Assembly: GCF_010727605.1 (NCBI RefSeq)
Contig: NZ_AP022568.1
Span: 2,976,001 to 3,040,000, forward strand
Source of the DNA: Mycobacterium simiae
GTDB taxonomy: Bacteria; Actinomycetota; Actinomycetes; Mycobacteriales; Mycobacteriaceae
Direction: 5' to 3'
Length of the DNA: 64,000 nucleotides
Shown here piece by piece: positions 1-42,089 of the stretch. A program made the position numbers and the translations under genes. Positions within the stretch are counted from its first letter, which is position 1; the number at the start of each line of letters is the position of its first letter. Below the pieces are notes generated by a model. It saw only the letters and a list, made by a program, of their open reading frames with translations. It was not told the origin of the DNA and ran no database searches.

Positions 1-2009
1 AGCGTGGTGCCCAGGCCGTGGCCGCGGTAGGCATGTTCGACGCAGTTGGTGCACGCCTCGTTGACGACCAGCACTATGTCGTCGATCAACTCGCGCGGCA
101 CGTCGGCGGCACGCAACCAGTCGGCCAGCCGGTGCCGGACCGTGGCCAATTCGTCTGCGATGGCGTGGGTTTCGATGCGCAGGGGCGCGTGCTGGTGCCG
201 GTAGATCACCATCGCCACATCGTCGTCATACCCGGCCGGCGGAGCCAGTCGGCGCAGCACGGCGTCTGCGACTGCATCCAGCGGCAGTGTTCTAGTCTCC
301 ACCAAAACCTCGGCGGCACGGGTGATTCCGTCGTCGATGGACTCGTGCTTGCGCTCAACCAACCCGTCGGTGAACACGAGCATGGTGGAGCCGGAGGATA
401 GCCGCCGGGAAATCTGCGGGCGCGGCCCGTCGCGGCGCACCGCGAGCGGGACGGAACGGGCATCGTTGAGCACCGAGGTGCCCGACGGTCCGGCGAGCAC
501 CGCGGGCATGTGACCGGCGTTGCTGTACTCCATAACCCCGGTATCGGTGTCTAGAATCGCCAGAAAAACGGTGGTGCAGTAGGCATTCGGAATCAGCGAG
601 GCCGCTAGGTCGAGCTGCTCGAGCAGCAACGCGGGTTGAGCGCCGTTGATTAATAGGGCCCGGGCCGAACTGCGCAACTGGCCCATGGTGGCGGCGGCGG
701 GCAGCCCTCGGCCCACACAGTCGCCGACGACGATGCCGATGCGGTGGGCGCCGATGGGCAACACGTCATACCAGTCGCCGCCGATCTCCAACGGCGGGAC
801 CGCCGGTTCGTAACGCATCGCGAATCCCGGCGGCGGTTGCATCGGCGGCAGTAGCGCACGCTGCAAGGTCAACGACGTCTCGCGCGCGCTCTCGAACTGC
901 CGGACATGCTGCATGGCAAGGCTGAGGTGACCGATCAGCACCGTCACCAGGAGTCGATCCTCCGCACTCACCCAGCGTGGCGCGCCCAGCTCCAGCCACA
1001 GGGCGAGGTCTCCCTTGCCGGACAGCACCGCGACCAATCCTTGTGCCTTACCGGGCTTGTTGGGGGGTTCGACCGTCTTCGCGGTCAACGGTAGTTGCTG
1101 GCGCGCGTCTTGAAAGGTGTTGCGCAGCCACGGTTCCAGGCCTCGCCACGTCGTTTCGACGGGTTCACCGGCCACCTGGACGGTGGGTTCACCGTCGCCG
1201 GCCGGCCAGGTGACCGCGATGACGCGCTGGACGCCGATGGCGCCGCGGCACTCGTCGAGGGTGATCGACAGTAATTCGGAGACGCTTTTGGCGACGGCGA
1301 CGGCGGTGGCCAACCGCAGCACGGCGCTTTCCCGTGCGGCGAACGCGCGTTCGGCGGTGACGTCGCGGATCGTGCCCACGTACATTTCGTGTTCGGCGCC
1401 GCTCTCCTTAACGATGTTGATGCTCACCATCACCCAGGCGAGGTGCCCGTCTCGATGCCGGACCGGTGTCTCGTACTGGGCCAGACCCTCGGCGCGCACC
1501 CGCGATTGTTGTTCTCGCGCAGTCTTTTTGTCGACGACCCAGGGGTGTGGCCAGCGATAGGGCAACCCCTCGTGCGAGTAGCCGAGGATTTCCTCGAAGG
1601 CGTGGTTGACCTCGATGATCGACCCTTCGTGGTCGGCGACGAAGAACCCCTCCTGCAACGAATTGACCAGTGCGGTGCGGAATTTATCCCGATGGGCGAG
1701 CACGTCGGCGCGGGCGCGCTGTTCGGCGTACCGCTTGGTGCCGTCGAGGAAGCCGCGCGTGGCGACGTCGAGCGGAGCCAGCGTCTGCAACAGGAACTCC
1801 AGTGCGATGGGTGCCTCGATCTGGATGTTCTGGGCGACGTGGAGAATCAGCCGGACGTGGTGCTCGACGATGTCGAGCATGCTGATCTGCTCCTGGAGCG
1901 CCCGGCGTCCAAGCTCGTGACCGACCGCGAGGGTGTCCTCGTCGCGTGCGGCCAAGTAGGCGCGCAGCGCCGCGTTGTACTGGGCGTGGAATTGGTCCGC
2001 AGCGGTCAT
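1..2009 (-). CDS. PAS / SpoIIE (PP2C) phosphatase / HATPase fusion, 3' end cut by window
   Basis: The frame is open from the ATG at 2009 to the window edge, about 669 codons, with no stop, so the C-terminus is missing. About 110 helical N-terminal residues come first, then a PAS domain (NSLQEGFFVADHEGSIIEVN), a GAF-like stretch, and a SpoIIE-type PP2C domain with its metal aspartates (IGGDWYDV, GDCVGRG, FTDGLVE, GYDDDVAM). The visible end carries a serine-kinase ATPase N-box (VVNEACTNCVEHAYRGH). It combines a phosphatase that would dephosphorylate an anti-anti-sigma factor with an anti-sigma-type kinase domain. Its ATG overlaps the upstream stop (ATGA), so it is the last visible gene of the rsb operon and takes the place RsbU has in Bacillus. 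The natural substrate is inferred, not shown; RsfB next door is the obvious candidate. Confidence 0.85.
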   Translation of the reverse strand, partial: MTAADQFHAQYNAALRAYLAARDEDTLAVGHELGRRALQEQISMLDIVEHHVRLILHVAQNIQIEAPIALEFLLQTLAPLDVATRGFLDGTKRYAEQRARADVLAHRDKFRTALVNSLQEGFFVADHEGSIIEVNHAFEEILGYSHEGLPYRWPHPWVVDKKTAREQQSRVRAEGLAQYETPVRHRDGHLAWVMVSINIVKESGAEHEMYVGTIRDVTAERAFAARESAVLRLATAVAVAKSVSELLSITLDECRGAIGVQRVIAVTWPAGDGEPTVQVAGEPVETTWRGLEPWLRNTFQDARQQLPLTAKTVEPPNKPGKAQGLVAVLSGKGDLALWLELGAPRWVSAEDRLLVTVLIGHLSLAMQHVRQFESARETSLTLQRALLPPMQPPPGFAMRYEPAVPPLEIGGDWYDVLPIGAHRIGIVVGDCVGRGLPAAATMGQLRSSARALLINGAQPALLLEQLDLAASLIPNAYCTTVFLAILDTDTGVMEYSNAGHMPAVLAGPSGTSVLNDARSVPLAVRRDGPRPQISRRLSSGSTMLVFTDGLVERKHESIDDGITRAAEVLVETRTLPLDAVADAVLRRLAPPAGYDDDVAMVIYRHQHAPLRIETHAIADELATVRHRLADWLRAADVPRELIDDIVLVVNEACTNCVEHAYRGHGLGTT

Positions 2010-2632
2010 GTCGGGGCCCCTCGGTGCCGCGCGGCGAGGACCATGGCGTCGTCGGTTTCCTTCGCGTGCTTTCCCAATATGTGGTCGGTGATCACCGTCG
2101 CAGGCGCGGCGAAGTCGATGCGCTCCAGGTGGTCCTCGGCGATGCCGTCGCTGGCGATCACGATCAGGTCGCCGATGCGCATCGAAACCACCTGAGCGGG
2201 ACGGATTTCCGGGATGCGGTAGCCGACGATTCCGGCGGCCAGACGCGCGCTGGACCGGATGTGCACCCCGGTTGCGTCCTTGGAGACGAGGTTGGCACTG
2301 ACGTTGCCCACCCCGGTCCAGGTCAGCGTGTTGGCCGCAAAGTCCACCCGTGCCAACGTCATTGCGACTCCCCTGGTCCCGCCCAGCACCCGGTGGCAGA
2401 GCTGGACCAAGACTTCGAGGCGCTCGTCGGCCGCCCGCTGCACCGCCTCGACGGCGCGCGTCGCGGCGGTCGCGGCGGCAGGCCCGTGGCCGAGGCCGTC
2501 GACCACACCGAACAGCGCGGCACTGCCGTCGATGCCGATCGCGATTTTCCGGTCGCCGCTGGTGTTTTCACCCGGGACCGGACGTCCGGCGTTCGCCCAC
2601 TCGATCGGGCCCAGTCGGCCGTTTTCACGCAC
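2006..2632 (-). CDS. rsbX: RsbX-like PP2C serine phosphatase
   Basis: This 208-residue protein has a compact PP2C/SpoIIE fold without sensor domains. Visible motifs are GVVDGLGHG near residue 45 (metal-binding aspartate), a GVGNVSANL strand, and DLIVIASDGIAEDH late in the protein. Size and architecture fit RsbX, the feedback phosphatase that resets RsbS and RsbR after a stressosome response. Its start overlaps the end of the RsbT-like gene by 8 bases and its stop overlaps the next start, so it is inside the operon. A general SpoIIE-family phosphatase is the alternative reading; the gene context favours RsbX. Confidence 0.75.
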   Translation of the reverse strand: MRENGRLGPIEWANAGRPVPGENTSGDRKIAIGIDGSAALFGVVDGLGHGPAAATAATRAVEAVQRAADERLEVLVQLCHRVLGGTRGVAMTLARVDFAANTLTWTGVGNVSANLVSKDATGVHIRSSARLAAGIVGYRIPEIRPAQVVSMRIGDLIVIASDGIAEDHLERIDFAAPATVITDHILGKHAKETDDAMVLAARHRGAPT

Positions 2633-3071
2633 TGCCGGGGACCCACTTCCACATTTCGATGACAGTTCCCTTGCCCAGCGCGGATTCGACGATCAACCGG
2701 TCCATCAGCCGGCGCGCGCCCGGCAGCCCCATGCCCAGGCCGCGCCCGGTCGAGTAGCCGTCCTCCATCGCGCGTTCCACGTCGGCGATCCCCGGCCCGT
2801 CGTCCTCGGCGCGGACCACCAGCGCCTCCCGGTTCTCCCGCTCGGCGACCATGACCCGCACGGCGCCGCGGCCGGCGTAGCTGGTGATGTTTCGTGCGAT
2901 TTCGGAGATCGCGGTCGCGATCATGGTGACGTCGGTCAGCGAAAAGCCGAGGTCCAGGGCGAGCTGATGACCGGCCTTGCGCGCGTCGACAATGTCGTCG
3001 GGATTGTTGATGGCGACGACCACAATGTCGGGGTCACACGCCACCGTCGCGCCCGATCGTTGATTTGCCAA
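2625..3071 (-). CDS. rsbT: RsbT-like serine/threonine switch kinase
   Basis: The 148-residue product is a single GHKL ATPase domain. The N-box reads AISEIARNITSYAGRG, the G1 box EDDGPGIADVE and the G2 box GLGMGLPGARRLMD, which closely parallel Bacillus RsbT. RsbT phosphorylates RsbR and RsbS, leaves the stressosome and activates the output phosphatase. The annotated start overlaps the RsbS-like gene by 38 bases; a GTG about 10 codons further in is a possible alternative because the first residues look non-conserved. It lies between RsbS and RsbX in the order found in classical rsb operons. Confidence 0.85.
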   Translation of the reverse strand: MANQRSGATVACDPDIVVVAINNPDDIVDARKAGHQLALDLGFSLTDVTMIATAISEIARNITSYAGRGAVRVMVAERENREALVVRAEDDGPGIADVERAMEDGYSTGRGLGMGLPGARRLMDRLIVESALGKGTVIEMWKWVPGSA

Positions 3072-3423
3072 CTGCGCGTTGGCGATTCAGGAGGGCGAGA
3101 CCCTCTTCGAGGTCTAGGGCGGTGTTCATGTCGTCGAAGGCCAGCCCCAGCTGGACCATCGCGAACGCGACCTCCGGCGACAGGCCGACGATGACTGTTT
3201 CGGCGCCGCGCAGCCGGGTCATATGCGCAATCGTGCGTAGTGAGCGCGCGGCGAACGAATCCATCACGTCGATGGCGGTGACGTCGACCACGATGCCCTG
3301 TGCCCGGAACCGGCTGACCCGTTCCATCAGATCTTCGCGCAGCTTTTCGGTGTCGGAGTCGGACAGGGCGGCCTGGACCGTGGCGATGAGGATCGAGCCC
3401 TGCTTCAGGATGGGGACTGGCAT
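3034..3423 (-). CDS. rsbS: RsbS-like stressosome STAS protein
   Basis: This 129-residue stand-alone STAS domain has the family segment DVTAIDVMDSFAARSL, with a serine at residue 56 that matches the RsbT-phosphorylated serine of Bacillus RsbS. The later motif RGAETVIVGLSPEVAFAMV matches the second conserved STAS loop. RsbS and RsbR together build the stressosome core that sequesters RsbT. The ORF begins with ATG just 22 bases after the end of the RsbR-like gene. It differs from RsfB (a RsbV-type substrate of an anti-sigma kinase) in this serine loop and in its partner genes. Confidence 0.85.
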   Translation of the reverse strand: MPVPILKQGSILIATVQAALSDSDTEKLREDLMERVSRFRAQGIVVDVTAIDVMDSFAARSLRTIAHMTRLRGAETVIVGLSPEVAFAMVQLGLAFDDMNTALDLEEGLALLNRQRAVGKSTIGRDGGV

Positions 3424-3445
3424 GTGGCGCCCGTGTCAGTCGTGT

Positions 3446-4327
3446 TCACCCGGGCTGCTCGCCGGTGCGCGTGACTTCGTAGCCGAGCAAACGTTCGGCC
3501 TCTTCAATACCACCCTGCAGGTCACCGACGGCGTTCATCTTCGACAGATCCAGACCGATCGTCACCAGCGTCAGCGCGATCTCCGAGGACAGGCCGGTGA
3601 TGATCACGCTGGCACCCATCAGGCCCGACGCATCGACCGTCTGCACAAGGTGATTCGCCACGGTGGAGTCGATGGTCGGCACACCGGTGATGTCGATGAC
3701 GACCACTTTCGCGCGGTTGGCCCGGATGGCGCGCAGCAGCTGCTCGGTGACCTGGCGGGCGCGCTGGCTGTCCAGCACCCCAATGATCGGCAGAATCAGC
3801 AGCTGCTCGCGCACCTGCAACACCGGTGTCGACAGCTCGCGGATGGCTTCCTGCTGTTGGCGGATGATGCGCTCACGTTCCTGCACGAAGCTGACGGCCA
3901 CGGTATTGGCGATGCGGTTGGCGGCCGGTTCGTAGGCGTCTAGGACGCGGTTGAGCATTTCGAAGTCGGTCTGATACTTCTCGAACAGCGAGCGCGCGAG
4001 CACGTCGCGCAGCAGCAGCACGATGCCGACGACTTCGTCGGTTTCCACTCCTCGGGGAATGATGCGCTCGGAGAGGTCGCGCGCGTAGGCTTGCAGCGCC
4101 TCGACGCTACCGGTTTCGAGCACCTCGACGTAATTGTCGTAGACAGCGGTCGCTTCGGAGAACAGCTCTTCGGGTGTCATCGCGGTGAGCAATTCGGCCT
4201 CGGTGATGCGGCGCGCCCACTCCTCACGCAGGACCGTGCGGTTCTGCCGCAAATGCTGCACTAGCTGCGGTAGCAGACCTTCGCTGGAGATGCTCACGGT
4301 GGTGCCGGTGCTGCTGGAATCTGACAT
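3446..4327 (-). CDS. rsbR: RsbR-like stressosome sensor/co-antagonist
   Basis: The protein has 293 residues: a helical N-terminal sensor half (residues about 15-155) and a C-terminal STAS domain (about 165-285). The linker-STAS junction IRELSTPVLQVREQLLILP is the classic RsbR signature, and DITGVPTIDSTVANHL plus VIITGLSSEIALT hold the positions where RsbR is phosphorylated by RsbT. The N-terminal half shows no haem or PAS motif I recognise, so the sensed signal is unknown. It is the first gene of the minus-strand operon, with an ATG start and a GGGAGG ribosome site just upstream, and is divergent from rsfB. Confidence 0.85.
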   Translation of the reverse strand: MSDSSSTGTTVSISSEGLLPQLVQHLRQNRTVLREEWARRITEAELLTAMTPEELFSEATAVYDNYVEVLETGSVEALQAYARDLSERIIPRGVETDEVVGIVLLLRDVLARSLFEKYQTDFEMLNRVLDAYEPAANRIANTVAVSFVQERERIIRQQQEAIRELSTPVLQVREQLLILPIIGVLDSQRARQVTEQLLRAIRANRAKVVVIDITGVPTIDSTVANHLVQTVDASGLMGASVIITGLSSEIALTLVTIGLDLSKMNAVGDLQGGIEEAERLLGYEVTRTGEQPG

Positions 4328-4486
4328 CTGGCCTCCCGAGTGCCGCGACGCGCTCCGCAGTGCGCAGGTTCTTTTGCGAGACTAGCCTGGTTTGACGCGA
4401 CAGAGGTGTTGAGGGCATCTTCTTCTCGCAGTTCGTACGGCAGGTTAGGCTTGCACCACAGTTAAGGCCCGGACGAAGGATCGCCA

Positions 4487-4855
4487 TTGTCAGCTCCTGA
4501 TTCGATTACCACGTTGATTGCGGACCACGATGGGGTGTCTGTGGTCAGTGTCAGCGGTGAGATCGATTTGGTCACCGCGCCCGCCCTGGAGCAAGCCATT
4601 AGTGCGGTTGTTGCTGAAGGGCCCACGGCGCTGGTCATCGATTTGTCCGCGGTGGAGTTCCTGGGTTCAGTGGGGCTGAAGATCCTGGCGGCGACCTACG
4701 AGAAGCTCGGCAAGTCCGCGGAGTTCGGCGTGGTCGCTCGGGGTCCGGCCACCCGGCGCCCGATTCATCTGACCGGTCTGGACAAGACGTTCCCGCTGTA
4801 TCCGACGCTGGACGACGCGTTGACGGGCGTGCGGGACGGCAAACTCAACCACTGA
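4487..4855 (+). CDS. rsfB: Anti-anti-sigma factor RsfB (RsbV-type STAS protein)
   Basis: This is a 122-residue STAS protein starting from TTG. The N-terminus MSAPDSIT and the core IDLSAVEFLGSVGLKILAAT match M. tuberculosis RsfB (Rv3687c), including serine 61, the phosphorylated position. RsfB binds the anti-sigma factor RsbW/UsfX when unphosphorylated and so releases SigF. It is transcribed away from the stressosome operon across a 159-base gap. Placing it next to a full RsbR-RsbS-RsbT-phosphatase set suggests that the set controls RsfB phosphorylation; that link is inferred. A TANNNT-type -10 (TAGGCT) lies about 35 bases upstream, but its -35 is poor. Confidence 0.93.
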   Translation: MSAPDSITTLIADHDGVSVVSVSGEIDLVTAPALEQAISAVVAEGPTALVIDLSAVEFLGSVGLKILAATYEKLGKSAEFGVVARGPATRRPIHLTGLDKTFPLYPTLDDALTGVRDGKLNH

Positions 4856-4857
4856 CG

Positions 4858-5868
4858 TCACCGCATCAGCGAAAGATTGCGCCAGAAGCTCACCAGGCTG
4901 TCGGTGCCGCCGAACAACGTGGTGAAGTTCGTGGAGTCGACCAGGACGATGTCGGCCGCGCGTTGGCCGTCGGGCGGCATCCAGATCAGCGCGTTGAATT
5001 CGGTGTTGCCCGCCGCGGTGAACGGGTGTGGACGGGTCGGATCGACGCGTTGACGGCCCAGCACGCGCAGCGTATCGCCCTCGGGCGCCCTCAGCTCATA
5101 GTGCGGCAGGTGCGGGTGGAAGTTGAGGGTCGTGACATTGTCGAGCAGTCCTAGCGGATCCAGGTCCCGGAACCCGGTGAGCGGAGCGATCTCGCTGCCC
5201 CCGGCGGTGACCGCCGGTCGCAACCCCCAGATGTTGTGGACGGGAACGTCGAGCGCCCGCATCAGGGAACGGGTGTACTGGCTGAATCGCTGCTGGCGCG
5301 GCACTAACGGGTCGCCGTGGTGGGAGTATTCGATTTGGCGTTGTCCCTGGTCATCGGTGAAGCCGACATCGTGATGCGGGGCTAGCAGCAGGCACGTGCC
5401 GTCGCGCTGTAGCCAGCTTTGGATCGCCGCGATTTCGGCTGGCCGCGCTTCGTCCTGCCCGATTACGTGGTCCAGCCCGAACACCATCAACGTGTCGGTG
5501 TCGGCGAGGACCCGTTCGTCGACGGGCAAAAAGTAGCCGGCCTGGTCGATGCGCTGGAACACCGCGACCGGGTGACCCGTCAGCTCGCCGGCCAGCTGCT
5601 GGAAGTGCAGTGTCGAGCGATGGAACAGCTCCAGGGTTCCGGCGATGCCTTGCAGGAAGTGCGCCTCGTCCCATTCCGGGGTCTCGTACTTGGGCCACGC
5701 GACCCGGCGGACCTCGGTCATCGTGGAGAACCGGTTATCGAGCGCGGCGATGTCTCGCTGTGCTTCCCACGGATAGCTCCAGGTCCAGTAGATGCTGATG
5801 CGACGGCGGCCCGGGGTATGCCGGCGCGGAACCTGCGCCTGGTTGTAGGTGCGTGCGGGCGTAGTCAT
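4858..5868 (-). CDS. Hypothetical protein, third gene of DyP operon
   Basis: I do not recognise the family of this 336-residue soluble protein. It has no signal peptide or membrane segment. A central region (about residues 125-175: DTDTLMVFGLDHVIGQ, then WLQRDGTCLLLAPHHDVGF) looks like a Rossmann-type or class-I-amidotransferase-like (ThuA-like) fold, with one cysteine and adjacent histidines but no clear catalytic triad. It starts 10 bases after the DyP peroxidase stop and ends 2 bases from the convergent rsfB stop. It is probably co-expressed with the peroxidase; a role in handling a peroxidase substrate or product is only a guess. Confidence 0.75.
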   Translation of the reverse strand: MTTPARTYNQAQVPRRHTPGRRRISIYWTWSYPWEAQRDIAALDNRFSTMTEVRRVAWPKYETPEWDEAHFLQGIAGTLELFHRSTLHFQQLAGELTGHPVAVFQRIDQAGYFLPVDERVLADTDTLMVFGLDHVIGQDEARPAEIAAIQSWLQRDGTCLLLAPHHDVGFTDDQGQRQIEYSHHGDPLVPRQQRFSQYTRSLMRALDVPVHNIWGLRPAVTAGGSEIAPLTGFRDLDPLGLLDNVTTLNFHPHLPHYELRAPEGDTLRVLGRQRVDPTRPHPFTAAGNTEFNALIWMPPDGQRAADIVLVDSTNFTTLFGGTDSLVSFWRNLSLMR

Positions 5869-5878
5869 GGTGTCTCCA

Positions 5879-7198
5879 CTAAGTCAGCGTGGCCAAATAT
5901 CGCAGGCCGTTGAGGCCCGGCAGAAAGAAGTAGGCGCCGCCGGTGAGGGTGGTAAAGGCGGGCAGACCCCGCAGCACCTTGCGGATCGGACGCTTAGGGA
6001 TTTTGAATTCCATTGTGCCGTCCTGCGTTCCGCAGATCGGATCGCGCTCGTTGCCCAGCTCGTGGAAGTTGTGATCGTTGATCCACACGTTCTGCGCGAA
6101 CTCGAACTGGCGCACCAGGCTGGCGCAGATGATGAATGCCGCGATGCCGCGGTCGGTGCCGTCGTCGTCCGCACCCTCCGGCAGCGCCTCGCCGTAGGTC
6201 GCCCCCCGCCGGATTATCCGGTGCCGGTTCATGTTTACTGCCGTGTCGCGGGGATTTAGCCGGCGGATATGGGCCCCCAGGGGTACCGCGTATCCGAAGG
6301 GGTCCATCTCCTTGTAGTTGAAGTCGTTGTTACGCAACGAGTCTGCGCCGAGCTCCGGATCGTCCTGCTCCGGGGCAAGCACCAGCGGCGCGCCACTTCG
6401 CCATCGGCCCATCAGCTTCGCCGCCAGTAGATCCTCATCGGCGGGTGTGCCCGCCTGCTCGCGCAGGTAGTTTCGGAACAGGCCGACATGTTCTTGCAGG
6501 CGGCGATAGGCCATGTAGCTGCCATTACGCGAGAGTTCCGGTGGCTGAGGGAGATTAGCGACGACGCCCTCTTCGTCTGGATAGCCGAGGATGAATTCTC
6601 CTGCCTTGAGCGCCCCGCCCGAGCCCGGCGTGGGCTCTTCCCCCGTGCCCTCGATTACCGGCTGGGACAAGCGGTCCCGGAAGCCGAAGTGATCGTGGGC
6701 GTGGTCGAAAGGCGGTGTGGCGTTCAAGTCGAGATGCGACAACACTCGCACCCCGGGGCATCGCTCGACCAACTTCCTGTGCACGGCGGTGCACCGGTGA
6801 TGCTCGGCATCGTTGCGGGCGAATAGGATTGCGATCGCATGCAGATCGTCGCCGGCCAGCCCGCCGCTCCAGCTGTCGGGGTGGTTTCGGCCGGTGTCGC
6901 CCAAGATGTCGGCCCGCGCCGCCATGCCCTCCCGAAACGCGTCCGGGAAACTGGCCAGCGAATCTTCCGGTACGCCCAGCGCCCGCAGGCCAGGCCAGGT
7001 GAACGCCAGGGTGATCCAGCGGTCTTGGCTGTCCATCGTTTTGCGGGCGTCCGACGCCGATTGGACCGTGTCGAGCAGTTCACTCAGCCATGCCTGGCCG
7101 CCGGCCGGATCGTCGAAAGACAGGAACTCGTAGCGTCCGGTCATCGCGGGCGTCCGCGTCACCAGGATGTGCTGGATGTTGTCGAGATCGAGCGTCAC
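5879..7198 (-). CDS. Dyp-type haem peroxidase
   Basis: The product has 439 residues, at the long end for the family. It shows HDHFGFRDRLSQPVIEG near residue 175, the position of the GxxDG distal-haem motif, in which the catalytic aspartate is kept but the final glycine is arginine. GAHIRRLNPRDTAVNMNRHR holds the proximal histidine and the conserved NPR. DyP enzymes use peroxide to oxidise dyes, phenolics or other substrates. There is no Tat or Sec signal, so it is probably cytosolic or encapsulated. Its start overlaps the stop of the upstream gene by 4 bases (ATGA). No encapsulin gene is present in this window. Confidence 0.88.
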   Translation of the reverse strand: MTLDLDNIQHILVTRTPAMTGRYEFLSFDDPAGGQAWLSELLDTVQSASDARKTMDSQDRWITLAFTWPGLRALGVPEDSLASFPDAFREGMAARADILGDTGRNHPDSWSGGLAGDDLHAIAILFARNDAEHHRCTAVHRKLVERCPGVRVLSHLDLNATPPFDHAHDHFGFRDRLSQPVIEGTGEEPTPGSGGALKAGEFILGYPDEEGVVANLPQPPELSRNGSYMAYRRLQEHVGLFRNYLREQAGTPADEDLLAAKLMGRWRSGAPLVLAPEQDDPELGADSLRNNDFNYKEMDPFGYAVPLGAHIRRLNPRDTAVNMNRHRIIRRGATYGEALPEGADDDGTDRGIAAFIICASLVRQFEFAQNVWINDHNFHELGNERDPICGTQDGTMEFKIPKRPIRKVLRGLPAFTTLTGGAYFFLPGLNGLRYLATLT

Positions 7199-7755
7199 TG
7201 CATCTGGTCGAGCATGTCGGAGAAAGCGGCTTTAAGCCGCAGCGCCTTCTTTATCTCGTCGGCGCTGACGTATGGGTACTCCCCGTACTCGAGGAAACTG
7301 GGGCATTGGTGCTCGCGGACGAACCTGATGAACGCTTCGGGGTTGGTCTGCCAATCCTCGGGAAAGCCTTCAAGATTGGTGAACACGGTGGTCACACCCG
7401 ACTGCGAGAACAGCTGAATCGCATCTTCGGTGTATTTGTCGAAATCGGTGTCGAAGATCCCCTGGTACTGGAAATGCAACCCCGAGCCGACGTCAAACAG
7501 TTGCCAGCGAAGATAGTGCAGGCGCAGCGGTGCGAGCAGATCCGGGTGCTCGGCGATGGCGGCCTCGATCACTTTTCCGTATTCGCGAATCGCGTCTTCG
7601 CGGCCGGGCTTGACCTTGGCGATGATCGAGAAGCCGTAGCATGCAGGCGTTCTCGGGAACACGGGTCCGTAGCGGCCGCGCTGAAGTTCGAAGTAGCCGT
7701 CGGCGGGAATCGCCATCGCCGCGGGCTTACTCCATTCGGGTTCGGTTGCCGACAT
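7195..7755 (-). CDS. Conserved hypothetical protein, first gene of DyP operon
   Basis: This 186-residue cytosolic protein begins with ATG behind a good ribosome site (GAGGAG). CYGFSIIAKVKPGREDAIREY suggests one half of a ferredoxin-like alpha/beta barrel, and LHFQYQGIFDTDFDKYTED a second similar unit, so it may be a dimeric ferredoxin-like fold like the half-domains of DyP and chlorite-dismutase proteins. I do not recognise a named family. It is translationally coupled to the DyP gene and most likely works with it. Confidence 0.75.
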   Translation of the reverse strand: MSATEPEWSKPAAMAIPADGYFELQRGRYGPVFPRTPACYGFSIIAKVKPGREDAIREYGKVIEAAIAEHPDLLAPLRLHYLRWQLFDVGSGLHFQYQGIFDTDFDKYTEDAIQLFSQSGVTTVFTNLEGFPEDWQTNPEAFIRFVREHQCPSFLEYGEYPYVSADEIKKALRLKAAFSDMLDQMQ

Positions 7756-7923
7756 CGAGTACTCCTCGGGTTAGGCGCGGCCTGGGCCACGGCCACATGT
7801 CATGAATGCGTGACGCGGACTGCCGCCATTGCGGGCAATCCCGCCCCTGCGAAGCCGGGGTGTCGGCGCACCGCGCGCGTGATCCACCTAAGTATCGTTG
7901 CACCGCCGGAGGGTTTCGGTGCG

Positions 7924-8436
7924 ATGATCAGCGACATGGATGTCGACCACCCGGAAGACGACCAGCGGTGGGATCGGGACACGCGCGGCGAGACCGAGAC
8001 CGAGCGGCTCGATCGCAACTGGAATAGCCTGCTGCAGGAGCTTCGCGTCGTGCAGACGGGCGTGCAACTGCTCACCGGGTTCTTGCTGACGCTGCCTTTT
8101 CAGCAGCGGTTCGATGTCCTCGATCAACCGATGCGGATCACCTATTTGGCGACGGTCGGTTGTTCGGTGGCCGCGACGGTGCTGCTGATTGCGCCGGTGG
8201 GTATCCACCGGCTGCTGTTCCGACGGCATCGCCTGCGGGTGCTGGTGTCGGCGGCGCACCGGTGCGCGTACGCCGGTCTGGCGCTGCTTGGGTTGGCACT
8301 GACCGGGGTGACGATCATCGTCTTCGTCGCGGTGGCCGGGACCACGGTGGGATTGATTGCCGGAGCGTGTGCCCTCATGATGTTCGGGTGTTTTTGGTGG
8401 CTGCTGCCGTTGGCGTTGCGCACCCGCGGCACCTGA
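7924..8436 (+). CDS. DUF6328-like four-helix membrane protein
   Basis: The protein has about 170 residues: an acidic N-terminus, a helix ending LLQELRVVQTGVQLLTGFLL, then four hydrophobic segments (about residues 42-58, 67-90, 108-130, 138-160) and a short basic tail. The family is a small actinobacterial membrane group of unknown function. An upstream purine-rich GGAGGG sits about 12 bases before the ATG at 7924; the ATG at 7936 is an alternative. It is divergent from the DyP operon across a gap of 168 bases that presumably holds both promoters. Confidence 0.75.
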   Translation: MISDMDVDHPEDDQRWDRDTRGETETERLDRNWNSLLQELRVVQTGVQLLTGFLLTLPFQQRFDVLDQPMRITYLATVGCSVAATVLLIAPVGIHRLLFRRHRLRVLVSAAHRCAYAGLALLGLALTGVTIIVFVAVAGTTVGLIAGACALMMFGCFWWLLPLALRTRGT

Positions 8437-8441
8437 TCTGA

Positions 8442-9116
8442 TCAGCCGCCGGGCGCCAGGCCGGCGATCGGAGTGGCGTTCAGCTGCGTGAGCAGATCCT
8501 GCGGATCGGCATAGACCGGCGAGGCTCCCGCTGCCGCTAATTCCTCGCGAGAGATGCCGCCGCTCAACACCCCGATGCAGGAGACGCCAGCGGCCCGAGC
8601 GGCGTGGGCATCCCAGACCGCATCGCCGACGAAGATCGCGTGGTCGGCGTCGACTCCGGCGCGGTCCAGGGCGACCTGCACGATGCCGGGCTCCGGCTTG
8701 GCGGTGTCGACGTCCCGCGACGACGTCGTCGCCGCGATCACGTCGTCGCAGTCCAGCACCTTGCGCAGCATCTGAAGTTCGTCGTCGGGTGCCGAGCTGG
8801 CCAGCACCACCTGCAGGCCCAGGTCCGCGACGCGGCGAAGCAACTCCTGGGCGCCCGGCAGCGGTGCCAGCAGCGGCGAGAGCTCGCGATAGTGCCGGCC
8901 GTGTCCCTCGCTCAGCCGGTCTTGAACCTCGTCGGGGGCGTTGTCGGAAAGGGTCCGGACCAGTGTCGAGCCGTCCATGCCGATGCACCGGTGGATGTGC
9001 CAGGCCGCCACCGAAATGTCTTCGGCGGCAAAGGCGCGTTGCCACGCATAGACGTGCAGGTAGTTGGAGTCGACTAGGGTTCCGTCGACGTCGAACAGCA
9101 CAGCGGGAGCATTCAT
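8442..9116 (-). CDS. HAD-superfamily hydrolase (phosphoglycolate-phosphatase-like)
   Basis: This 224-residue protein begins APAVLFDVDGTLVDSNYLH, giving the nucleophile and acid/base aspartates of HAD motif I at residues 9 and 11. A helical cap follows (residues about 16-85). Motif II is QVVLASSAPDDELQ, the motif III lysine is in DVDTAKPEPGIVQVAL, and motif IV is IFVGDAVWDAHAA. Length and cap type match the PGP/beta-phosphoglucomutase group, but the substrate cannot be read from sequence. It is convergent with the preceding membrane gene, 5 bases apart. Confidence 0.85.
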   Translation of the reverse strand: MNAPAVLFDVDGTLVDSNYLHVYAWQRAFAAEDISVAAWHIHRCIGMDGSTLVRTLSDNAPDEVQDRLSEGHGRHYRELSPLLAPLPGAQELLRRVADLGLQVVLASSAPDDELQMLRKVLDCDDVIAATTSSRDVDTAKPEPGIVQVALDRAGVDADHAIFVGDAVWDAHAARAAGVSCIGVLSGGISREELAAAGASPVYADPQDLLTQLNATPIAGLAPGG

Positions 9117-40435: not shown

Positions 40436-40464
40436 CCCGGGCGAAAAAAGACTTGAACATGCAG

Positions 40465-40503
40465 AGCGGGCGACGCTCCGAAGTATTCGGTCCGCCGCCC
40501 GCT
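40465..40503. terminator. Large hairpin downstream of the Fic-like gene
   Basis: AGCGGGCG (40465-40472) and CGCCCGCT (40496-40503) are perfect complements, and inside them CCGAA/TTCGG forms a second stem with a 3-base loop. It lies 30 bases after the stop. On the minus strand it is followed by a TTTTTT run (40445-40450), so it could terminate transcripts from either side. Confidence 0.5.
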
Positions 40504-40872
40504 AGCACGGAACCCGGTTACCATGCGTGCACTTTTGGGCTGCGTGGGTGGCCTCGGCGATCTTGCGACGCTTCGAGCCTCAACCCCACCCAAAGGGTCG
40601 TCCAAGCTCTTCTGCTTTTTCGCAATTACGCAGGCCCGCAACACTTCTGCCATTATCGCGGCTATGACTCCGCGTGGGTGCCGGGTACCGTGCTGGGCGC
40701 CCGGGTTGGGAGATCGAACCTTCTCTTCCGGATCGACCTTGGCCGCACCGGGCTTCCGTGGTTCCTTTGTACTACTAGACCCTTAGCACAGCAAGGGTCA
40801 ATTCTGTAAACATTGCGAATTCGCCGGCGATCGTATTTGCCGGCCGACGGTGTTCGGCGAGTCGCGCCGACG
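40504..40872. other. Gene-free convergent intergenic region
   Basis: About 370 bases between two convergent genes. Base composition is lower in GC than the flanks, and the short open frames have no ribosome sites or family resemblance. I see no tRNA, repeat or clear promoter here. Unusual for such a compact stretch. Confidence 0.5.
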
Positions 40873-41896: not shown

Positions 41897-41984
41897 CTCG
41901 GCCTACGCCGAGGGTGTATCAGCCCGACCCCCCGGGGCTGATGCACGACGACCTCCGCCTCCTCCCCCCCTGGCGGGGGTCGTC
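41897..41984. repeat. Three consecutive hairpins
   Basis: Stem 1: CTCGGC/GCCGAG at 41897-41912. Stem 2: ATCAGCCC/GGGCTGAT at 41918-41942. Stem 3: GACGACC/GGTCGTC at 41947-41984 with an inner C-run/G-run stem, followed on the plus strand by CCTTTT. All three are perfect. They suggest a structured RNA or a leader/attenuator. Confidence 0.6.
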
Positions 41985-42089
41985 CCTTTTCTGGGGTATT
42001 TTTCCCGGCATTCGAACCATCGCAATCTGCCCTCTGCGCGTTGCGGGCACACTGTTATCCATAGCACCGGCAGACACTCGCGGCACGTC

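What the first reader, a model, noticed from the sequence alone, without database searches (positions are those of the whole stretch)
1..4855. Complete stressosome-type module (RsbR-RsbS-RsbT-RsbX-output phosphatase) beside rsfB
Four minus-strand genes overlap into one operon with the phosphatase gene and carry RsbR, RsbS (serine 56), RsbT and RsbX signatures. Divergent from them is RsfB, the M. tuberculosis regulator of SigF. M. tuberculosis has rsfB but, to my knowledge, no RsbRST set. Some other mycobacteria have stressosomes. The arrangement suggests that RsbT activates the PAS-SpoIIE protein, which dephosphorylates RsfB and frees SigF.
Basis: partly seen in the sequence, partly recalled or inferred. 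Interest (0 to 1): 0.75.

Follow-up and report, generated by a model that had tools for sequence, protein, structure and literature searches.

The report
Mycobacterial stressosome operon beside rsfB
This is a known stress-sensing gene set of environmental mycobacteria, intact here as far as the window shows; comparing it across the genus shows that its sensor part has been lost repeatedly, and that one lineage of its phosphatase has lost the docking domain where the docking partner is gone.

Summary
Window 1-4855 carries rsbR-rsbS-rsbT-rsbX-rsbUW on the minus strand, with rsfB divergent. rsbUW is cut by the window start.

The module is not new: it is the published mycobacterial RsbRST/RsbX/RsbUW locus (M. 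marinum rsbR is MMAR_5182), reported in most slow growers and absent from the M. tuberculosis complex (PMC8115616).

In 396 genomes of the genus, rsbR, rsbS and rsbX are lost together (rsbS and rsbX: 8 of 8 independent pairs). Seven genomes keep rsbT-rsbUW with no rsbS found anywhere. All 137 RsbUW loci with rsbT keep RsbU_N; of 27 without rsbT, 16 (one clade) lack RsbU_N, apparently by in-frame excision, and in the other 11 it tends to evolve faster. This supports the RsbT-to-RsbUW link, but by comparison, not biochemistry, and with few independent events. That RsbUW acts on RsfB is inferred from position, motifs and published M. smegmatis work.

Nearest relative found: M. sherrisii (92% DNA identity).

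The parts
3..2009 (-). rsbUW, cut by the window start: RsbU_N, PAS, a middle part without Pfam match, SpoIIE phosphatase, start of HATPase
   Evidence: full length 745 aa in L001
1761..1982 (-). RsbU_N domain of rsbUW (residues 10-83), presumed RsbT dock
   Evidence: PF08673, 67.7 bits
195..746 (-). SpoIIE phosphatase domain of rsbUW (residues 422-605)
   Evidence: PF07228, 131.3 bits; Asp residues invariant in 81 of 81 aligned proteins
3..158 (-). start of the HATPase (RsbW-like) domain of rsbUW, from residue 618
   Evidence: PF13581, 47.6 bits
2006..2632 (-). rsbX, SpoIIE-type phosphatase
   Evidence: PF07228 1.7e-13; PDB 3zt9 6e-18 and RsbX 3w40 4.5e-7
2625..3071 (-). rsbT, GHKL-type switch kinase (TTG start listed; internal GTG possible)
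   Evidence: HATPase 1.7e-10; ATP-site residues E57, N61, D90 and G-box glycines
3034..3423 (-). rsbS, STAS antagonist with Ser56
   Evidence: Listeria RsbS 3e-25
3446..4327 (-). rsbR, helical N-domain plus STAS domain with Ser187 and Ser221 at the phosphosite positions
4328..4486 (.). intergenic region with -10-like hexamers TAGGCT (4446, +) and TAGTCT (4384, -); no SigF-type motif
   Evidence: hexamers are short; conservation judged by eye in a 20-row alignment
4487..4855 (+). rsfB, anti-anti-sigma STAS protein with Ser61

Best explanation
It is a stressosome (RsbR-RsbS shell, RsbT kinase, RsbX reset phosphatase) wired to RsbUW, a fused phosphatase-kinase that sets the phosphorylation of RsfB. 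At rest RsbT is held on the RsbR/RsbS shell and the HATPase domain of RsbUW keeps RsfB phosphorylated on Ser61 and inactive. A signal at the globin-like domain of RsbR lets RsbT phosphorylate RsbR and RsbS and leave. Free RsbT docks on RsbU_N of RsbUW, the SpoIIE domain removes the phosphate from RsfB, and RsfB takes the anti-sigma factor UsfX off SigF. RsbX resets the shell. Shown here: the parts, their key residues, their order, and a loss pattern that ties RsbX to RsbR/RsbS and, more weakly, RsbT to RsbU_N. Inferred: shell assembly, direction of phosphoryl flow, RsfB as substrate of both RsbUW activities, SigF as output.
For: Families and key residues of each part. Globin-like N-domain of RsbR. 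rsbR, rsbS, rsbT, rsbX and divergent rsfB in 80 of 80 named loci, rsbUW in 78 (loci chosen by RsbR similarity; the two without rsbUW end shortly after rsbX). RsbU_N in 137 of 137 RsbUW loci with rsbT, 11 of 27 without. RsbU_N lost in 16 loci of one clade, all without rsbT, with the protein start running in frame into the linker in the 15 printed. Retained RsbU_N evolves faster without rsbT: dN ratio to core, median 2.43 in 5 pairs against 1.21 in 43 full-module pairs, one-sided p 0.0018. RsbX lost with RsbS in 8 of 8 independent pairs, p 0.0078. rsfB divergent from rsbUW in 33 of 33 reduced loci listed. The presumed UsfX of M. sherrisii has Arg for the N-box Asn and no DxG box, both kept in RsbUW, so UsfX is unlikely to be the RsfB kinase. 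In M. smegmatis that kinase is RsbW2 (PMC7693655, passages). RsbT activates RsbU through its N-domain and linker in B. subtilis (PMC12143880, passages).
Against: No assay links RsbUW to RsfB. PAS and about 200 further residues stand between dock and phosphatase, so the B. subtilis linker mechanism cannot simply be copied. RsbU_N loss needs one change on the tree, so co-loss with rsbT cannot be tested as independent events (pairs: 1 same way, 0 opposite, 4 no difference). Eleven loci without rsbT still have RsbU_N. Some full-module pairs reach the same dN ratios (range 0 to 4.9), and T-only against full pairs are also high (median 2.63, 3 pairs, p 0.12), L114 among them (RsbU_N omega 0.58). The RsbUW kinase domain is by BLAST nearer to other RsbW-like domains (42% and 39%) than to RsbW2 (34%). 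M. sherrisii has other HATPase and STAS proteins that could act on the same sigma factor.
Confidence: 0.7

Rival explanations
1. The stressosome and the RsbT-RsbUW link are real, but RsbUW acts mainly on another STAS protein, such as RsfA or the STAS domain of a multidomain protein, and rsfB is only a neighbour.
For: M. sherrisii has seven RsfB-like STAS stretches and eight HATPase_c_2 matches. The HATPase domain of RsbUW is not closest to RsbW2.
Against: rsfB stays divergent and adjacent in 80 of 80 named loci and 33 of 33 reduced loci. In L100, which lacks rsbUW at this place, an RsbW2-like kinase gene follows rsfB and RsfS/RsfR-like genes stand beside it (by eye), the arrangement known to act on RsfB in M. 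smegmatis (PMC10950880, passages).
Confidence: 0.15
2. The HATPase domain of RsbUW is itself an anti-sigma factor that binds SigF or a second SigF-like sigma, and RsbT or RsfB controls that binding.
For: Rv1364c, a related multidomain protein, was reported to bind SigF in vitro (PMC10950880 and PMC7693655, passages). M. sherrisii has two SigBFG-type sigma factors over the cut-off.
Against: The domain keeps the ATP-site residues of a working kinase in 81 of 81 aligned proteins and is fused to a phosphatase, which fits an enzyme pair on RsfB. No sigma gene lies in the listed ORFs of window 1-9000.
Confidence: 0.1
3. RsbU_N loss and fast evolution have nothing to do with RsbT; they reflect chance in a few clades.
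For: RsbU_N loss has one origin; rates come from few lineages.
Against: No RsbUW locus with rsbT (0 of 137) lacks RsbU_N; faster rates appear in two separate parts of the tree (L105/L106 and the L094-L117 group).
Confidence: 0.1

Closest known systems
Mycobacterium marinum RsbRST/RsbX/RsbUW (MMAR_5182 rsbR, MMAR_5183 rsbS; PMC8115616, abstract, passages and sections 5, 10, 23 seen; Pettersson 2013 seen only in its reference list)
   Same: Same gene set in the same species group. The paper reports these genes in most slow growers and their absence in the M. tuberculosis complex.
   Different: Another species, nearest to M. sherrisii. The paper infers that the genes came after most slow growers split from fast growers; rsbR or rsbS remnants in 4 of 7 T-only loci and a full module in Mycolicibacterium tusciae (L066) suggest older presence and repeated loss.
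Bacillus subtilis / Listeria stressosome and RsbU (PMC12143880 passages; PDB entries)
   Same: RsbS phosphosite, RsbR STAS domain and globin-like N-domain, RsbT ATP site, RsbX, RsbU_N on the output phosphatase.
   Different: Ser in place of Thr at both RsbR sites; PAS and HATPase domains fused to the phosphatase; no sigma gene in the operon; RsbX between RsbT and the output.
R-S-T-X modules of other phyla (PMC9237108, passages)
   Same: Gene order R-S-T-X followed by a protein with RsbU_N.
   Different: Here the output is a phosphatase-kinase fusion beside an anti-anti-sigma gene.
M. smegmatis rsfB-rsbW2 with RsfSR (PMC10950880, PMC7693655, passages)
   Same: A kinase and a phosphatase for RsfB encoded at the rsfB locus.
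   Different: There kinase and phosphatase are separate proteins under a two-component system; here they are presumed fused in RsbUW under RsbT.

Membership tests
Stressosome (RsbR/RsbS/RsbT) | RsbS: single-STAS protein with the phosphorylated Ser | tested here: met
   3e-25 to Listeria RsbS, Ser56 aligned
Stressosome (RsbR/RsbS/RsbT) | RsbR: globin-like N-domain plus STAS domain | tested here: met
Stressosome (RsbR/RsbS/RsbT) | Phosphorylatable residues at both RsbR STAS positions | tested here: met
   Ser187 and Ser221 in place of Thr; Ser in 40 of 40; in the 24-row alignment Ser221 is invariant, Ser187 only 90% or more
Stressosome (RsbR/RsbS/RsbT) | RsbT with intact ATP site | tested here: met
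   PDB hits are SpoIIAB-type only
Stressosome (RsbR/RsbS/RsbT) | Assembly of a large RsbR-RsbS-RsbT complex | not testable with these tools
   Interactions and co-localisation reported for M. marinum (PMC8115616)
RsbX | Single-domain SpoIIE/PP2C phosphatase in the R-S-T-X order | tested here: met
   activity on RsbR/RsbS not testable
RsbU | RsbU_N dock plus SpoIIE phosphatase | tested here: met
   67.7 and 131.3 bits; sequence match to solved RsbU_N 2j6z weak, E 0.063
RsbU | Dock, linker and phosphatase only, as in B. subtilis | tested here: not met
   PAS and HATPase also present: RsbUW in the naming of PMC8115616
RsfB | STAS anti-anti-sigma orthologue with Ser61 | tested here: met
   8ih8 1.2e-53; Ser61
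SigF partner-switching cascade | usfX-sigF in the same genome | tested here: inconclusive
   No genome held for the window; present in M. sherrisii
SigF partner-switching cascade | RsbUW acts on RsfB | not testable with these tools
   inferred from position, motifs and published work on M. smegmatis

The most novel reading that the evidence does not exclude
In several mycobacterial lineages the stressosome shell (RsbR, RsbS and the reset phosphatase RsbX) has been deleted while RsbT and RsbUW stay intact, under purifying selection and with RsbT's ATP site unchanged (7 of 7). These would be shell-free RsbT-RsbUW switches on RsfB, in which RsbT works without its known antagonists and must have another substrate or controller. 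When RsbT also goes, its dock RsbU_N decays and in one clade was cut out in frame, leaving a PAS-bearing phosphatase-kinase.
Probability: 0.5. Interest if true: 0.55.

Novelty: already known. Interest (0 to 1): 0.38.

Why it matters
The intact locus is the published mycobacterial stressosome. The graded series of reduced loci is the useful part: natural deletions show which proteins belong together, and they make an open point testable, namely what phosphorylates and dephosphorylates RsfB in mycobacteria other than M. smegmatis. If RsbUW is that enzyme, its reported absence from the M. tuberculosis complex would fit the statement that no RsfB kinase is known there (PMC7693655, passages).

Tried and rejected
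A SigF-type promoter between rsbR and rsfB (autoregulation): strict motif in 0 of 89 intergenic regions on either strand, loose motif in 3 (plus) and 5 (minus). Only literal consensus patterns, recalled by me, were scanned.

The RsbUW kinase domain as a fused RsbW2: BLAST puts it nearer to two other RsbW-like domains of M. sherrisii, so only position supports the idea.

Scars of rsbR/rsbS in all seven T-only loci: my first reading by eye said so, and note 3 still says it. The shuffle test supports 4 of 7 (L096, L098, L099, L114) and not L086, L112, L113.

rsbT against RsbU_N loss as independent events: too few events. The Fisher p of 2e-15 ignores kinship. In one search the 5 no-T pairs come from few lineages, and the omega comparison gave no p value.

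Rows dropped. From the 164-locus count: G295 (contig end), G034/L097 (broken frame), G009 (rsbS and rsbT near a contig end, rsbUW not listed). From the tree: two of every three named loci (M. sherrisii L002 among them), L081-L084, L097, L122, L126. From the pair test: L081, L115, L122, L126, L153, L157 by name, and L086 and L097 by the filters.

The 19 loci of the conservation comparison were picked by me among full modules with low RsbUW identity (55-68%), so the RsbUW figure is low by choice.

Supplements of that paper were not available.
Full report
WHAT IS THERE. Pfam gives RsbU_N, PAS, SpoIIE and the start of a HATPase domain for the gene that runs off the window; SpoIIE for rsbX; HATPase for rsbT; STAS for rsbS, rsbR and rsfB. 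RsbUW is 745 aa in M. sp. 1100029.7 (L001), with a full HATPase domain at 619-728. By DNA the block is 92% identical to M. sherrisii (L002) over 4853 bases and 87% to L001; RsbUW protein is 94% and 89%. RsbS, RsbR, RsbX and RsfB hit solved counterparts by sequence. RsbT hits only SpoIIAB-type kinases in the PDB, but it has the full ATP site and the expected neighbours.

IT IS KNOWN. PMC8115616 (abstract, passages and sections 5, 10 and 23 seen) describes rsbR, rsbS, rsbT, rsbX, rsbUW and rsbV in most slow growers among 244 genomes, absent from the M. tuberculosis complex and most fast growers, with interaction data for M. marinum. Its rsbV is presumably the gene called rsfB here (my inference; the word RsfB does not occur in its main text). 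PMC9237108 (passages) describes R-S-T-X modules with RsbU_N-bearing outputs in other phyla. The arrangement in this window is that known system in another species.

GENUS SURVEY. One scan of named genomes kept the 80 loci most like the window's RsbR: all 80 hold rsbR, rsbS, rsbT, rsbX and divergent rsfB, and 78 hold rsbUW. RsbUW matches were listed for 160 rows only; six more genomes were searched singly and nine were read from fetched rsfB loci. Of 156 RsbUW loci with coordinates, 128 have rsbT and rsbS beside them, 2 have them on another contig, 7 have rsbT but no rsbS found in the genome, and 19 lack both. G394, scored there as lacking RsbU_N, has it when its DNA is read.

ORDERED DISMANTLING. 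Fetched loci show four states beside rsfB: full module, rsbT-rsbUW only (7), rsbUW alone with RsbU_N (11), rsbUW alone without RsbU_N (16). Further genomes have rsfB without rsbUW beside it (L085, L100, L101, L119, L120). On a quick tree of 81 RsbUW cores built without the RsbU_N columns, the T-only state needs 5 changes, RsbUW alone with RsbU_N 5 (at least 4), and loss of RsbU_N 1 (16 rows, support 99). rsbX goes with rsbS in 8 of 8 independent pairs (p 0.0078); rsbT goes with rsbS in about 4 of 8. rsbS is never found without rsbT. This fits RsbX acting on RsbR/RsbS, and RsbT acting on RsbUW.

SCARS. Between rsfB and rsbT, 4 of 7 T-only loci keep significant pieces of rsbR or rsbS (0 of 200 shuffles as good): L096 (RsbS start), L098 (RsbR residues 48-85), L099 (RsbR 238-255), L114 (RsbR end and RsbS start). 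L086, L112 and L113 do not. Pieces like rsbX lie between rsbT and rsbUW in L098, L114 and L096 (0, 1 and 2 of 200 shuffles), not in L086 or L099; L112 and L113 have gaps too short to test. So at least these four are losses, which argues against late acquisition as inferred in PMC8115616 for those lineages.

RsbU_N AND RsbT. With rsbT, 137 of 137 RsbUW loci have RsbU_N; without, 11 of 27. In the clade without it, 16 loci lack it. In the 15 printed a start resembling that of RsbU_N (by eye) runs in frame into the linker, so the domain looks excised. Where RsbU_N is kept without rsbT it evolves faster relative to the core: dN ratio median 2.43 (5 pairs) against 1.21 in full modules (43 pairs, range 0 to 4.9; one-sided p 0.0018); no-T against full pairs 2.26 (5 pairs, p 0.017). 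T-only pairs give 1.40 (2 pairs, p 0.47) and T-only against full 2.63 (3 pairs, p 0.12). RsbU_N bit scores in the six proteins scanned: 64.5 (full), 55.4 (T-only), 48.2, 38.6 and 37.4 (no rsbT), none (excised).

WHAT STAYS. RsbT keeps its ATP-site residues in 102 of 102 other rows and 7 of 7 T-only rows, and the phosphatase and kinase residues of RsbUW checked are invariant in 81 of 81. dN/dS of RsbT is 0.07-0.23 in six pairs with a T-only member and 0.06-0.18 in five full pairs. RsbT without its shell still looks like a used protein.

CONSERVATION GRADIENT. Against the window, over 19 full-module loci that I picked for low RsbUW identity, median identity is RsbR 93% (STAS 99%, linker 100%), RsbS 86%, RsbT 77%, RsbUW 58%, RsbX 57%, RsfB 53%. 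The shell is nearly frozen while the output side drifts, as a tightly packed shell would predict (inference).

KINASE OF RsfB. In M. sherrisii usfX (named by position before sigF) and sigF sit on another contig. That UsfX has Arg in place of the N-box Asn and no DxG box, while RsbUW and the RsbW2-like protein of L100 keep both; the HATPase_c_2 search did not list it. In M. smegmatis RsbW2 is the sole kinase of RsfB (PMC7693655, passages) and RsfR dephosphorylates it (PMC10950880, passages). L100 shows that arrangement at the rsfB locus (by eye). I therefore think RsbUW provides both activities in module-bearing species; no assay shows it.

LITERATURE CHECK. Searches for RsbUW, for RsbT with RsbX, actinobacteri, stressosome and phylogen, and for phrases on rsbT without rsbR/rsbS gave no title or abstract start that reports shell-free rsbT-rsbUW or the RsbU_N excision. 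Only listings were seen, and the library holds open-licence papers only, so this does not prove absence.

Noticed in passing
window 4858-7755 (-): Three-gene block (336 aa without Pfam match; 439 aa DyP-type peroxidase just under the TIGR01413 cut-off; 186 aa without match) next to rsfB. Missing at this place in M. sherrisii L002, beside rsfB in L028, L036, L043 and L044, some kb away in L008, L016, L023, L024, L026 and L029: perhaps a movable cassette.
   Followed up: partly
L159 and L160 (M. sherrisii genome): Two SigBFG-type sigma factors over the family cut-off: sigF behind usfX, and a second one on another contig.
   Followed up: partly
window 40458-40759 (-) and 41913-41988 (+): Ms1 small RNA and 6C RNA matches over Rfam thresholds.
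   Followed up: no
L094, L095, L107, L108, L109, L117: In one group without rsbT, further SpoIIE-domain stretches flank rsfB and rsbUW on both sides; perhaps other phosphatases have taken over.
   Followed up: no
L086 (G186): A diverged rsbT-rsbUW pair on a long branch, grouped with L137 (support 80), without detectable rsbR/rsbS remnant.
   Followed up: no
G161, G280, G335: Distant RsbS (37-42%) and RsbT (38-41%) neighbours, with no RsbUW match at E <= 1e-120: maybe a second kind of stressosome module in the genus.
   Followed up: no
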